A DNA stretch of 38,376 nucleotides from Thermoleophilaceae bacterium (GTDB taxonomy: Bacteria > Actinomycetota > Thermoleophilia > Solirubrobacterales > Thermoleophilaceae), in contig JAUJNT010000003.1 of NCBI GenBank assembly GCA_030448005.1, positions 208,170 through 246,545 on the forward strand. The letters are read 5' to 3'. Below are positions 24,861 to 31,880 of this stretch, piece by piece. The translations under genes and the position numbers were made by a program. The notes beneath the pieces are model-generated. The model ran no database searches. It saw only the letters and a program-made list of their open reading frames with translations, and had not been told where the DNA came from. Numbering within the stretch: the first letter of the stretch is position 1; every line of letters begins with the position of its first letter.

Positions 24861-26558
24861 ATGACCCGCCTGAGCGGCTACCTGTTGCCCACCGAGAAGG
24901 AGGCTCCCGCGGACGCGGAGGCCCTTTCGCACAAGCTGATGGTCCGGGCCGGGCTCGTGCGACAGCTTGCCGCCGGGATGTGGACCTATCTGCCGGCCGG
25001 CTGGAGGGTGCACCGCAAGGCGGCCCAGATCGTCCGGGAGGAGATGGACGCGATCGGCGGCCAGGAGATGCTGATGCCGGTCCTTCAGCCCGCCGAGCTG
25101 TGGCAGCGCTCGGGGCGCTACGAGATCGACGAGCTGTTCAAGCTCAAGGATCGGCGAGAAGCCGACCTGGTGCTCGCGATGACCCACGAGGAGGCGCTGA
25201 CATTTCACATGGCCCGGGAGGTGCGCTCCTACCGTGACCTTCCGATGATCCTCTACCACATGCAGGTCAAGGAGCGCGACGAGCCGCGCCCGCGTGCAGG
25301 GCTGCTGCGCACGCGCGAGTTCGTCATGAAGGATTCGTACTCGTTCGACCGCGACCTCGGGGGCCTCGAGCGCTCCTACGAGCGGCACGTCACCGCCTAC
25401 GATCGGATGTTCGACCGGTCGGGGCTCGAGTGGTACCGGGTGGAAGCGGACGTCGGGATGATGGGCGGGTTGGGGGGGCACGAGTACATGGCGCCCTGCG
25501 CGGCCGGGGAGGACGACGTGGCGCTCTCGGACACCGGCTATGCCGCAAACGTGGAGGTCGCCAGAGCCACGGCGGCGCCCGTGGAGGGACTGCCCGCCCC
25601 CGCCGCCGAGCCGCAGCCCGTTGACACCCCGGGAGCCACCACCATCGAGGGCGTATCGGGGCTCCTGGAGGTGCCAGCGGGCGCTTTGATCAAGGCGCTG
25701 CCGGTTATGCGCGGCGACGGCACGCCCCTGCTGGTGGTGGTGAGGGGCGATCACCGCCTGAACGAGATCAAGCTCCAGAATGCGCTCGGCGGGCCCACAC
25801 GCCTCGCGACCGAGGGGGAGATCCGGGACGTCTTCTCGGCGCCCCCCGGATACATCGGGCCGGTCCGCGCGGAGGTACCGGTGCTGGCAGACGAGGCCCT
25901 GATGGCGATGCGCGGGCTGATCGCGGGCGCAAACGAGGAGGGGCGGCACCTGCGCGGCGTGGAGCCGGGGCGTGACTTCGAGGCCGAGTGGGCCGACATC
26001 CGCACCGTCGAGGCCGGTGACACCTGTCCCGGCGGCGCGACGATCCGGATCGAACCCGCCATCGAGATCGCGCACATCTTCAAGCTCGGCACGCGCTACA
26101 GCGACCCGCTCAATGCCAGGTTCCTCGACGAGGAGGGCAAGGAGCGCCACATCTGGATGGGCTCCTACGGGCTCGGGCCGGCGCGGATGGCGGCCGCGGC
26201 CGTCGAGCAGTTCGGGGACGAGAAGGGCATCTCATGGCCTCGCTCGATCTCGCCCTTCGACCTGCATCTCGTAACGCTCGGCCAGGAGGGCGAGGAGGCA
26301 CGAGAGGTCGCCGATCGGCTGTACGACGAGCTTCGCTCGCTGGGGCTCGAGGTGCTCTACGACGATCGCGACGCCGGCGCGGGGGAGAAGTTCGCCGACG
26401 CGGAGCTGCTGGGTTGCCCGCTGCGGCTCACCGTTGGCAGGCGCGGGCTCGAGAAGGGAGAGATCGAGGCCCAGGTCCGGCGCGGGCGGGAGAAGCGACC
26501 ACTTGCACTCGAGGGGGCGGCCACGGCCGCGGCGGAGCTGTGGCGCGAGCTTCCGTGA
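24861..26558 (+). CDS. proS: Prolyl-tRNA synthetase, bacterial type with editing domain
   Basis: Class II synthetase charging tRNA-Pro. The 565-residue protein has the N-terminal catalytic part (LMVRAGLVRQLAAGMWTYLPAGWRVH; motif 2 around LLRTREFVMKDSYSF), then an insertion of about 170 residues (roughly 225-400) matching the YbaK-like editing domain that hydrolyses Ala-tRNA-Pro, motif 3 near MGSYGLGPARMAAA, and an anticodon-binding domain (SPFDLHLVTLGQEG, YDDRDAGAGEKFADAELLG). A free YbaK-type deacylase is also encoded at 34149-34601. Overlaps the next gene by GTGA. Confidence 0.96.
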   Translation: MTRLSGYLLPTEKEAPADAEALSHKLMVRAGLVRQLAAGMWTYLPAGWRVHRKAAQIVREEMDAIGGQEMLMPVLQPAELWQRSGRYEIDELFKLKDRREADLVLAMTHEEALTFHMAREVRSYRDLPMILYHMQVKERDEPRPRAGLLRTREFVMKDSYSFDRDLGGLERSYERHVTAYDRMFDRSGLEWYRVEADVGMMGGLGGHEYMAPCAAGEDDVALSDTGYAANVEVARATAAPVEGLPAPAAEPQPVDTPGATTIEGVSGLLEVPAGALIKALPVMRGDGTPLLVVVRGDHRLNEIKLQNALGGPTRLATEGEIRDVFSAPPGYIGPVRAEVPVLADEALMAMRGLIAGANEEGRHLRGVEPGRDFEAEWADIRTVEAGDTCPGGATIRIEPAIEIAHIFKLGTRYSDPLNARFLDEEGKERHIWMGSYGLGPARMAAAAVEQFGDEKGISWPRSISPFDLHLVTLGQEGEEAREVADRLYDELRSLGLEVLYDDRDAGAGEKFADAELLGCPLRLTVGRRGLEKGEIEAQVRRGREKRPLALEGAATAAAELWRELP

Positions 26559-27169
26559 GCAAGAGGCGGTTGCTGGGCCTCGACCGATCCGGCGGCCCTC
26601 CGCCCGAGACGCAGAAGGGCCAGCCGCTTCGCCCGCTCACCATCCCGAACCTGGTGTCCTACGTCAGGCTGGCGCTGCTGCCGGTCTTCCTGGCGATGGC
26701 CTTCTCTTCGGACGACGGCAGGGGCGTCTCGGTGGCGTTGGTCTTCTGGCTGATCGCCATCGGGGACCAGCTCGACGGGTTCCTCGCGCGCGTCACCGGG
26801 CAGTACAGCCGCCTGGGCGCGCTGCTCGACCCGCTCACCGATCGTGCTCTGGTGCTCTGCGGGGCGGTGGTGTGCTGGCGCTTCGAGCTACTGCCCCGGT
26901 GGGCGCTCGCAGCCCTCGGCCTGCGTGAGCTCTTCATGCTCGCGCTCACCCAGTTCGGGCTGCGCAAGGGAATGGACATCCAGATCAACATGGTGGGCCG
27001 GTGGGCCGTGTGGCCGGTCATGTTCGCGATATTCCTGGCCTTGCTGACCGACACCCCTGTGGCCGACGTATCCTTGTACCTCGGTCTGGCCCTGACGTTG
27101 TCGGCGACCGCGATCTACGTCCACGATGGAATCGCCTTCCTTCGAGGCACACCCTCAAGCTCGACTTGA
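26555..27169 (+). CDS. pgsA: CDP-alcohol phosphatidyltransferase, PgsA type
   Basis: Membrane enzyme transferring a phosphatidyl group from CDP-diacylglycerol to an alcohol, probably glycerol-3-phosphate. GTG 26555 in the proS stop is chosen; the frame is open upstream only as a shadow of proS. The 204-residue product has the full family signature with Asp71, Asp74, Gly75, Ala78, Arg79, Gly88, Asp92 and Asp96 (DQLDGFLAR...GALLDPLTD). Five or six hydrophobic segments follow. Related enzymes make cardiolipin or phosphatidylinositol-phosphate, so substrate assignment is tentative. Confidence 0.85.
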   Translation: MSKRRLLGLDRSGGPPPETQKGQPLRPLTIPNLVSYVRLALLPVFLAMAFSSDDGRGVSVALVFWLIAIGDQLDGFLARVTGQYSRLGALLDPLTDRALVLCGAVVCWRFELLPRWALAALGLRELFMLALTQFGLRKGMDIQINMVGRWAVWPVMFAIFLALLTDTPVADVSLYLGLALTLSATAIYVHDGIAFLRGTPSSST

Positions 27170-27212: not shown

Positions 27213-27473
27213 ATGGACACCGTTCCGGATCTGGGAGCCCTCTCCGACGGAGAGCTCAAGGAGCTGATCGCACAGCTCACCGAGGAGGAGCAGGAGGTCT
27301 CCTATCAGCGCCGGATCCTGCACGGCCGGATCGACATCCTCCGCGCCGAGCTCGTCAACCGGCTGCGAAAGAAGCACGGAGAGGGCGAATCGACCATCAG
27401 CGGCGCCGACGTCGAGCAGCTCACCGACATCCTCTCCGGCAAGGCGATTCCCACGGACGAATCCGGTGGTTAG
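27213..27473 (+). CDS. RsiG-like small helical protein with a single c-di-GMP-binding-type motif
   Basis: An 86-residue, mostly helical protein. Residues 26-41 read EQEVSYQRRILHGRID, which fits the RsiG signature E-x3-S-x2-R-x3-Q-x3-D with His37 in place of Gln (Glu26, Ser30, Arg33, His37, Asp41). Streptomyces RsiG is an anti-sigma factor that holds the sigma factor WhiG when two such motifs bind a c-di-GMP dimer. Shorter one-motif relatives in deep-branching Actinobacteria act as homodimers. The C-terminal TISGADVEQLTDILSGK would be a second short helix. No sigma factor gene is adjacent; a GarA-like FHA protein and FtsR follow. Often annotated as aerial mycelium formation protein. Confidence 0.75.
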   Translation: MDTVPDLGALSDGELKELIAQLTEEEQEVSYQRRILHGRIDILRAELVNRLRKKHGEGESTISGADVEQLTDILSGKAIPTDESGG

Positions 27474-27505
27474 GCCGGCACCGGCAAGACCCGGGGCCTA
27501 AGAGC

Positions 27506-27964
27506 ATGCACTGTCCGCGATGCGGCTTTGCCAACGCCGAGAGCGCCAACTACTGCCAGAAGTGCGGCGCCTTCCTAGTCGAGGCAGGGGGAAGCGGCGA
27601 GAGCACCGAGGCCTACCAGGTAGACGAGACCGGCGAGCTCAGGCCGGTCGACCTGGAGCAGGGCACCGGGGCGGGGGCCACGCTCGCGATCCGGTCCGGT
27701 GGCGGCCGCGCCGGTGAGGTGTTCGGCGTGGCCGGAGACCGGATGACCATCGGGCGGAGCCCCGAGGCGGAGGTGTTCCTCGACGACGTCACGGTGTCCC
27801 GCAACCACGCGCTCCTTGTGCGCCGGCGCGACGGTCTCTACATCGACGACCTGGGCTCTCTGAACGGCACCTATGTGAACCGCCGCCGGATCGAGTCCCA
27901 CCGGCTGCAGCACGGCGACGAGCTGCAGGTGGGCAAGTACAAGCTGAGCTACCTCGAGCGGTGA
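27506..27964 (+). CDS. GarA-like FHA-domain protein with N-terminal zinc ribbon
   Basis: A 152-residue soluble protein. Residues 1-22 form a zinc ribbon (Cys3, Cys6, Cys17, Cys20). A linker with STEAYQVDETGEL could hold a phosphorylatable threonine (Thr34 or Thr42). The FHA domain (about 58-150) has GRSPEAEVFLDDVTVSRNHA and GSLNGTYVNRR with the phosphothreonine-binding Arg84, Ser99 and Asn120. The domain is strikingly like mycobacterial GarA, which controls 2-oxoglutarate metabolism according to PknB/PknG phosphorylation; GarA has no zinc ribbon. The downstream neighbour is an FtsR-type MerR regulator, as in mycobacteria (Rv1827-Rv1828). Overlaps it by GTGA. Confidence 0.85.
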   Translation: MHCPRCGFANAESANYCQKCGAFLVEAGGSGESTEAYQVDETGELRPVDLEQGTGAGATLAIRSGGGRAGEVFGVAGDRMTIGRSPEAEVFLDDVTVSRNHALLVRRRDGLYIDDLGSLNGTYVNRRRIESHRLQHGDELQVGKYKLSYLER

Positions 27965-28704
27965 GCGCCCAGTCGGACGTGGAAGGTCGCACTGCCCCAG
28001 CCGCCCCCAGCGGGAAGTCGCTGACGATCGGCGCGGTCTGCAAGCAGCTCGAGCGCGAGTTCCCCGACGTCTCGATCTCGAAGATCCGCTACCTCGAGGA
28101 CCAGAAGCTCCTGGCGCCGCGGCGCACCGCGGGCGGCTACCGGCTCTACGGTCCCGCGGACGTGGGGCGGCTGCGTACGATCCTTCGCCTCCAGCGCGAC
28201 GAGTTCCTGCCCCTGCGGGTCATCCGCCAGGAGCTCGCCTCCGGGCGCGCCGACGAGGAGATCTCCAAGGGCCAGGGGCCCGATCCCCGGGCGCTGCGGC
28301 GCACCACGCTGACGGAGCGCCCGGGGGAGTCGCTCTACCGGCTTCAGGAGGTCCTCGATGAGACAGGCGCCGACGCGGCTCTCGTGAAGGAGCTCGAGGA
28401 GTACGGAGTCATCCGCGGGGAGAAGCGCGACGGCGAGATCCTCTACGACGACACCGTCCGCGAGATCATCAGAGCGGTCACCGAGCTCAAGCGGTTCGGA
28501 GTCGGGGGGCGCAACCTGCGCGTCTTTCGCACCTCCGCGGACCGTGAGGCCGCGCTGCTCGAGCAGATCCTCGCTCCGGCGCTGCGCTCGCGGAACCCGG
28601 AGCGTCGCAAGGAGGCGGTGCAGGCACTCGAGAACCTGGCGGCGATCGCCTCCCATCTCAAGCATCTGCTGCTGATCCGCGACCTGCGCAAGATCGCGAA
28701 GTGA
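27961..28704 (+). CDS. ftsR: MerR-family regulator, FtsR type
   Basis: DNA-binding regulator of 247 residues. The N-terminal winged helix-turn-helix (about 20-90) reads TIGAVCKQLEREFPDVSISKIRYLEDQKLLAPRR then GYRLYGPADVGRLRTILRLQRDEFLPLRVIRQEL, typical of the Rv1828/FtsR group. FtsR of Corynebacterium activates ftsZ. The C-terminal half has no ligand-binding domain I recognise, but is helical and ends in a basic segment (RDLRKIAK). The GarA-FtsR neighbourhood supports the assignment; targets in this organism are inferred only. Confidence 0.8.
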   Translation: MSAQSDVEGRTAPAAPSGKSLTIGAVCKQLEREFPDVSISKIRYLEDQKLLAPRRTAGGYRLYGPADVGRLRTILRLQRDEFLPLRVIRQELASGRADEEISKGQGPDPRALRRTTLTERPGESLYRLQEVLDETGADAALVKELEEYGVIRGEKRDGEILYDDTVREIIRAVTELKRFGVGGRNLRVFRTSADREAALLEQILAPALRSRNPERRKEAVQALENLAAIASHLKHLLLIRDLRKIAK

Positions 28705-30866: not shown

Positions 30867-31880
30867 CTAGGGCTGAGGCTGGGGGCCGCCCTGTGCGGTT
30901 GGCGGCGGGGGAGCCACGAAGTCCTCGATCCGCCCCCGGAGGACCGACCTACCGGAGTGGCCCTTGTTCTCGTCCACCGCTTCGCGGGAGATCTCGATGA
31001 ACTTGAAGCGCGCGAAGTCGCTCGTCAGGGGCGCCAAGCCCTGGTAGGTGCCCTGCTGGTTGGTGACCTGAGCGCCGAGGGAGCGGGCGTCGGTGTCGCT
31101 GTTGTAGAGCCAGACCTCGTAGGCCTCGCGGTTCCTGCTCGGGGTGAGGCGCGCCTGGATGATCAGCTGGCGCTTCTTGCCCTGCTGCGCTATCGCGGCC
31201 ACTCCGACGCCCTTTGCGCCCTCGACCGGCTTCAGCGCAAGCTGTCCGATCACGCGCGGGGCGGCCGCCTGCTTGCCCTTGGCGTCTGCCTTGTTGTCGT
31301 CGTCGTCGTCTCCGGTGAGCACTCCGCCGGGCCAGACCAGGATCGCCAGCAGGGCCACCACGGCGAAGGCGGCCGCGCCCGCGATACGCCGGCGGAGCAC
31401 GATCGCGCGGGCTTCGGGCGAGAGCTCCCCGCGCGGGGCCTGGTCGCCGTCGGAGGCGGAAGCGCCCGCCTCGGTTGGAGCCTTCTCCTTCTTTGCGCGC
31501 TTCGGCGCGGGAGGGGCGCCGGCCTCGCCGGTGGGAATGGTCGGCAGGTTGCCGGCGTCGTAGAACTGGTCGAGCGAGTCGAGCAGCGAGCGAGCCCAGC
31601 CGCGGGCGGTCTCCGAGCGGCGTAGGTGGTCTCTCGTGGAGGTGGACTCCGATGCCGACTGCTGTCCCAGCAGGTAGTCCGCGATCGGGCCGCGCCACTC
31701 CTCGTCGACCTGTGAGGCGCTCACGGGAGAGAGGGTCACGAGAGCGCTGCGGGCGAGCTCCCTCACGCGGGCCGTGGAGATGCCGAGGGTCTTGCCGAGC
31801 GCCTCGTAGGTCTGGCCCTGCTTCAGCAACAGCTCGATGATCGCCCGCTGCTCCGCGGAGAGCTGATCGAAGGTGGCCAT
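30867..31880 (-). CDS. Membrane protein: sigma-region-4-like HTH, one membrane helix, RskA-like outer domain
   Basis: A 337-residue protein with a mixed architecture. Residues about 5-50 (FDQLSAEQRAIIELLLKQG, YEALGKTLGISTARVRELA) are a helix-turn-helix like sigma-70 region 4 or LuxR. A low-complexity linker rich in Ala, Pro, Lys and Ser follows (about 110-155). One membrane helix spans about 166-187 (GAAAFAVVALLAILVWPGGVL), followed by an Asp cluster. The outer domain (about 205-322) resembles the anti-sigma-K (RskA) C-terminal domain (AYEVWLYNSDTDARSLG, FKFIEISREAV). The anti-sigma zinc-finger part is missing. A transmembrane one-component regulator is a reasonable guess. Divergent from the thioesterase with a 26-bp gap. 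Confidence 0.75.
   Translation of the reverse strand: MATFDQLSAEQRAIIELLLKQGQTYEALGKTLGISTARVRELARSALVTLSPVSASQVDEEWRGPIADYLLGQQSASESTSTRDHLRRSETARGWARSLLDSLDQFYDAGNLPTIPTGEAGAPPAPKRAKKEKAPTEAGASASDGDQAPRGELSPEARAIVLRRRIAGAAAFAVVALLAILVWPGGVLTGDDDDDNKADAKGKQAAAPRVIGQLALKPVEGAKGVGVAAIAQQGKKRQLIIQARLTPSRNREAYEVWLYNSDTDARSLGAQVTNQQGTYQGLAPLTSDFARFKFIEISREAVDENKGHSGRSVLRGRIEDFVAPPPPTAQGGPQPQP

What the first reader, a model, noticed from the sequence alone, without database searches (positions are those of the whole stretch)
27213..27473. One-motif RsiG-like protein: possible c-di-GMP-controlled sigma switch
Residues 26-41 match the E-x3-S-x2-R-x3-Q-x3-D c-di-GMP signature of RsiG with a Gln-to-His change. 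RsiG of Streptomyces has two motifs; a single-motif protein that dimerises is thought to be the ancestral state. No WhiG-like sigma gene is adjacent, so the partner here is open.
Basis: partly seen in the sequence, partly recalled or inferred. Interest (0 to 1): 0.75.

Follow-up and report, generated by a model that had tools for sequence, protein, structure and literature searches.

The report
Single-motif RsiG controlling pilus sigma factor
This is a normal member of a known small protein family (RsiG) that uses the messenger c-di-GMP to hold a sigma factor in check; the genome does carry that sigma factor (WhiG), and the likely output is surface pili plus the enzymes that make the messenger itself.

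Summary
In detail: window 27213-27473 (+) encodes an 86-residue protein with E26-S30-R33-H37-D41. It is a true RsiG (Pfam RsiG E=5e-22; matches solved Rubrobacter RsiG). The His is no deviation: it is invariant in 35 aligned relatives, and Conexibacter woesei RsiG with the same His binds c-di-GMP (PMC8325347). The "open" partner is in the genome: one WhiG, 192 kb away on the same contig, with the c-di-GMP-contacting K-x3-G-R intact. Diguanylate cyclases are present. RsiG occurs in 235 of 299 sampled genomes of the class, nearly always with WhiG, in conserved synteny pgsA-rsiG-FHA-merR. New here: a WhiG-type promoter lies upstream of pilM in all 11 family genomes with a detected pilM, and the refined motif falls before pilus and GGDEF/HD-GYP genes in relatives. 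Best reading: a homodimeric c-di-GMP-armed anti-sigma restraining WhiG, with type IV pili and c-di-GMP enzymes as output, as proposed for Rubrobacter. A new member of a known kind; the predicted output in Thermoleophilia extends published work.

The parts
27213..27473 (+). rsiG, single-motif RsiG, 86 aa
   Evidence: Pfam RsiG 5e-22; PDB RsiG hits; relatives up to 89% identical in Thermoleophilaceae
27288..27335 (+). c-di-GMP signature E26-x3-S30-x2-R33-x3-H37-x3-D41
   Evidence: read from translation; all five positions invariant in 35 relatives
26555..27169 (+). pgsA-like CDP-alcohol phosphatidyltransferase, conserved upstream neighbour
   Evidence: Pfam CDP-OH_P_transf; synteny
27506..27964 (+). 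FHA-domain protein, conserved downstream neighbour
   Evidence: Pfam FHA; next to rsiG in 65 of 68 loci, including distant ones
27961..28704 (+). MerR-family regulator, overlapping the FHA gene
   Evidence: Pfam MerR; synteny

Best explanation
The gene encodes a single-motif RsiG. Two copies pair as an antiparallel coiled coil, so that the two E-S-R-H-D motifs hold a c-di-GMP dimer. At high c-di-GMP this armed dimer binds the sigma2 and sigma4 domains of the genome's only WhiG and keeps it off RNA polymerase; when c-di-GMP falls WhiG is released. WhiG then transcribes the type IV pilus operon beginning with pilM and, judging from relatives, GGDEF/HD-GYP genes, giving feedback on c-di-GMP. Shown here by sequence: family membership, motif, WhiG and its c-di-GMP contacts, cyclases, co-occurrence, and conserved WhiG-type promoters. 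Inferred from the solved Rubrobacter and Streptomyces complexes: dimer, c-di-GMP binding, sequestration and direction of control.
For: RsiG family and PDB matches. E/S/R/H/D invariant. WhiG 282.8 bits against a cut-off of 189.6, with K40/G44/R45 conserved, unlike the other own sigmas examined. GGDEF proteins with GGEEF. RsiG and WhiG both present in 222, both absent in 55, discordant in 22 of 299 genomes. WhiG-type promoter TCAAG-N14-GCCGATA ending 22 bases before the pilM ATG. Same motif with <=2 mismatches before 27 of 60 pilM genes, against a mean of 0.34 and maximum of 5 for 300 permuted consensuses, only at spacers 15-16. Refined motif: 38 hits against 2 for the control in 8 relatives, with 7 GGDEF, 1 HD-GYP, 1 pilin and 1 T2SSE gene downstream besides 5 pilM.
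Against: Nothing was measured in this organism. In its own genome the strict promoter motif gave only 5 hits against 1 for the control; two look like chance, and the cyclase downstream of one is frameshifted in the assembly. The published consensus itself is not enriched there (24 against 17). No WhiG-type promoter was seen at the four other GGDEF genes checked. A congeneric genome has WhiG and the pilM promoter but no detected RsiG. The dimer was not modelled; fold search of the monomer was uninformative.
Confidence: 0.85

Rival explanations
1. It is an RsiG that binds WhiG and c-di-GMP, but the regulon here is something other than type IV pili; the pilM motif is a chance match or a relic.
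For: Published consensus not enriched over control in the own genome; about half of pilM genes in the class lack a close match within 300 bases.
Against: 11 of 11 family genomes with pilM carry the motif; it is absent at other spacers and with permuted consensuses; the motif also marks GGDEF, HD-GYP, pilin and T2SSE genes; no flagellin gene was found in the genome.
Confidence: 0.1
2. The protein has lost c-di-GMP control (His at the Gln position) and acts as a constitutive or differently gated anti-sigma.
For: Gln is replaced by His at the base-stacking position.
Against: C. woesei RsiG with His binds c-di-GMP, Kd 25 uM alone and 1.7 uM with WhiG (PMC8325347); the His is invariant in relatives together with all other motif residues.
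Confidence: 0.03
3. Its main partner is not WhiG but a neighbour product (FHA or MerR protein) or one of the other sigma factors.
For: rsiG-FHA-merR adjacency is conserved even in distant relatives, while whiG lies 192 kb away.
Against: Near-complete co-occurrence with WhiG; the K-x3-G-R contacts are absent from the six other own sigmas that could be aligned there; solved RsiG-WhiG complexes (PMC8325347).
Confidence: 0.05

Closest known systems
Rubrobacter radiotolerans single-motif RsiG in the (RsiG)2-(c-di-GMP)2-WhiG complex (PDB 7lq2, 7lq3, 7lq4; PMC8325347)
   Same: One motif per chain, homologous coiled-coil helix, WhiG present, WhiG-type promoters at pilus and cyclase genes.
   Different: Gln instead of His at the stacking position in Rubrobacter; regulon there backed by start-site mapping, here by conservation only.
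Conexibacter woesei, Patulibacter medicamentivorans and Thermoleophilum album RsiG (PMC8325347)
   Same: Same class (Thermoleophilia), single motif; C. woesei has the same His and binds c-di-GMP.
   Different: Their regulons are not described in that paper; the output predicted here was not in it.
Streptomyces venezuelae RsiG-WhiG (PDB 6pfj, 6pfv)
   Same: Same family and motif, WhiG partner with the same K-x3-G-R contacts.
   Different: Twin-motif monomer controlling sporulation.

Membership tests
RsiG | Sequence match to the RsiG family | tested here: met
   Pfam PF22802 77.8 bits against a cut-off of 27; PDB RsiG sequences
RsiG | E(X)3S(X)2R(X)3[Q/H](X)3D motif | tested here: met
   E26 S30 R33 H37 D41; the [Q/H] form is given in PMC8325347
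single-motif RsiG | One motif only, small protein, Rubrobacteria/Thermoleophilia | tested here: met
   86 aa, one motif; closest relatives are Thermoleophilaceae and Solirubrobacterales
single-motif RsiG | Long coiled-coil helix with flexible N- and C-terminal extensions | tested here: met
   Monomer model: helix 12-56 and helix 64-75, pLDDT 82.7
single-motif RsiG | Antiparallel homodimer | not testable with these tools
   Only monomer prediction available; the Foldseek search of the single-helix model was uninformative
RsiG | Cognate WhiG in the same genome with c-di-GMP-contacting residues | tested here: met
   WhiG 282.8 bits; K40, G44, R45
RsiG | c-di-GMP made in the cell | tested here: met
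   GGDEF genes, two with GGEEF and near-complete domains
RsiG | Binds c-di-GMP and WhiG | not testable with these tools
   Needs biochemistry; shown for C. woesei and R. radiotolerans (PMC8325347)

The most novel reading that the evidence does not exclude
Control of type IV pili and of c-di-GMP enzymes by an RsiG-WhiG switch is a class-wide feature of Thermoleophilia as well as Rubrobacter. It would then be the ancestral role of the switch, before a gene duplication and its recruitment to sporulation in Streptomyces.
Probability: 0.65. Interest if true: 0.5.

Novelty: new member of a known kind. Interest (0 to 1): 0.38.

Why it matters
The 2021 work left the output of single-motif RsiG known only in Rubrobacter. 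Conserved WhiG-type promoters at pilus and c-di-GMP-enzyme genes across Thermoleophilia make the ancestral function of the switch directly testable in cultured genera such as Solirubrobacter and Conexibacter. It also suggests a feedback loop: the switch senses c-di-GMP and appears to drive the genes that make and break it.

Tried and rejected
(1) His as a loss-of-function change: rejected. (2) Published WhiG consensus over the own genome with 2 mismatches: 24 against 17 for the control, no enrichment on its own; useful only with comparative data. (3) Second RsiG match at C1:729132-729257: no start codon seen in its frame near the match, frameshifted and truncated, beside a transposase-like ORF; taken as a pseudogene, not a second switch. 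(4) Flagella as output: no flagellin. (5) Foldseek of the monomer model: uninformative. (7) L157 and L160 motif hits: judged chance from position.

Full report
Observation. The ORF at 27213-27473 (+) reads as described and carries E26-x3-S30-x2-R33-x3-H37-x3-D41 once. It belongs to Pfam RsiG (5e-22) and matches solved Streptomyces and Rubrobacter RsiG sequences. NCBIfam has no model over its cut-off.

The His. Schumacher et al. 2021 (PMC8325347) write the motif as E(X)3S(X)2R(X)3[Q/H](X)3D. They show that C. woesei RsiG, with His, binds c-di-GMP (Kd 25 uM; 1.7 uM with WhiG). In 35 aligned relatives collected here the His is invariant, so it is the normal state in this lineage. In the set read from other families of the class most are also His, with a few Gln.

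Where it comes from. The nearest named relatives are Thermoleophilaceae MAGs (up to 89% identity), then Solirubrobacter and Conexibacter, so the genome is most likely a member of Thermoleophilia. The class is one of the two in which single-motif RsiG was described.

Context. The gene sits in proS-pgsA-rsiG-FHA-merR. In 68 loci from named genomes, FHA follows rsiG in 65, and FHA-merR persists in the more distant relatives that no longer show pgsA upstream. The spacing (43 bases after pgsA, 32 before FHA) suggests co-transcription; this is inference.

Partner. The genome has one sigma over the FliA/WhiG cut-off (C6:42892-43572, 282.8 bits; next best 127), beside xerC/D-like and EF-G-like ORFs (named from sequence). 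It aligns over nearly its full length to S. venezuelae WhiG. Its K40, G44 and R45 correspond to the sigma2 residues that touch c-di-GMP in both solved complexes. They are KGR in 20 of 20 WhiGs from the class, and in none of the six other own sigmas that could be aligned there. The sigma4 contacts of Rubrobacter WhiG were not compared.

Messenger. Five GGDEF loci were found (one is split over two hits), two with near-complete GGDEF domains and GGEEF. Phosphodiesterases were not searched for in this genome.

Co-occurrence. In 299 genomes of the class, RsiG and WhiG are both present in 222 and both absent in 55; 13 have RsiG only and 9 have WhiG only. The Fisher p of 9e-38 is not corrected for relatedness. 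Some discordant genomes are incomplete. PilM also associates with both.

Output. The type IV pilus cluster lies 30 kb beyond the window on the same contig (pilins, pilM, pilO). One hit of the published WhiG consensus search lies just upstream of pilM: TCAAGCGAATCGGATCCGTGCCGATAG. In 60 pilM upstream regions across the class, 27 have a match with at most 2 mismatches at spacer 15-16; permuted consensuses give 0.34 on average and at most 5, other spacers 0-2, and the opposite strand 0 and 4 at spacers 15 and 16. All 11 genomes of the window's family with pilM are among the 27. In one family (f6) the box sits at a nearly constant 85-90 bases from the pilM match.

A pattern refined from these (TMAAGS-N13/14-GYCGATA) gives 38 hits against 2 for the reversed pattern in 8 family genomes. 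The reversed control does not keep dinucleotides, so the ratio is inflated to an unknown degree. Of 30 loci retrieved, the gene downstream is pilM in 5 (circular, since the pattern came from pilM), GGDEF in 7, HD-GYP in 1, N-methyl pilin in 1, T2SSE (PilT-like) in 1 and HDOD-LuxR in 2. Two of the GGDEF and both HDOD loci come from two genomes of one genus. In the own genome the refined motif marks pilM, a secreted-protein ORF and a cyclase gene that is frameshifted in this assembly.

Structure. AlphaFold2 of the monomer gives helix 12-56 and helix 64-75, pLDDT 82.7, the layout of Rubrobacter RsiG. The dimer itself was not modelled.

Judgement. Membership as single-motif RsiG is firm. Mechanism follows by homology to solved complexes. 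Pilus and c-di-GMP-enzyme output is a prediction supported by conservation. The 2021 paper gives it only for Rubrobacter, and the held literature has no other paper joining RsiG and Thermoleophilia (open-licence papers only).

Noticed in passing
30867-31880 (-): 337-aa protein with an N-terminal sigma-70 region 4 HTH and a C-terminal RskA anti-sigma domain: an HTH fused to a membrane anti-sigma-like part.
   Followed up: no
L002:1501-1626 (-) (G000 C1:729132-729257): Decayed second rsiG copy, frameshifted and truncated, beside a transposase-like ORF.
   Followed up: partly
27213-28704 and L230-L232: rsiG-FHA-merR adjacency kept in distant relatives that no longer show pgsA upstream, which may point to a functional link.
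   Followed up: partly
genomes G003, G135, G153, G178: Four to six RsiG family matches in one genome, unlike the usual single copy.
   Followed up: no
genome G124 (same genus): WhiG and the pilM WhiG-type promoter present but no RsiG detected; loss or assembly gap not resolved.
   Followed up: no
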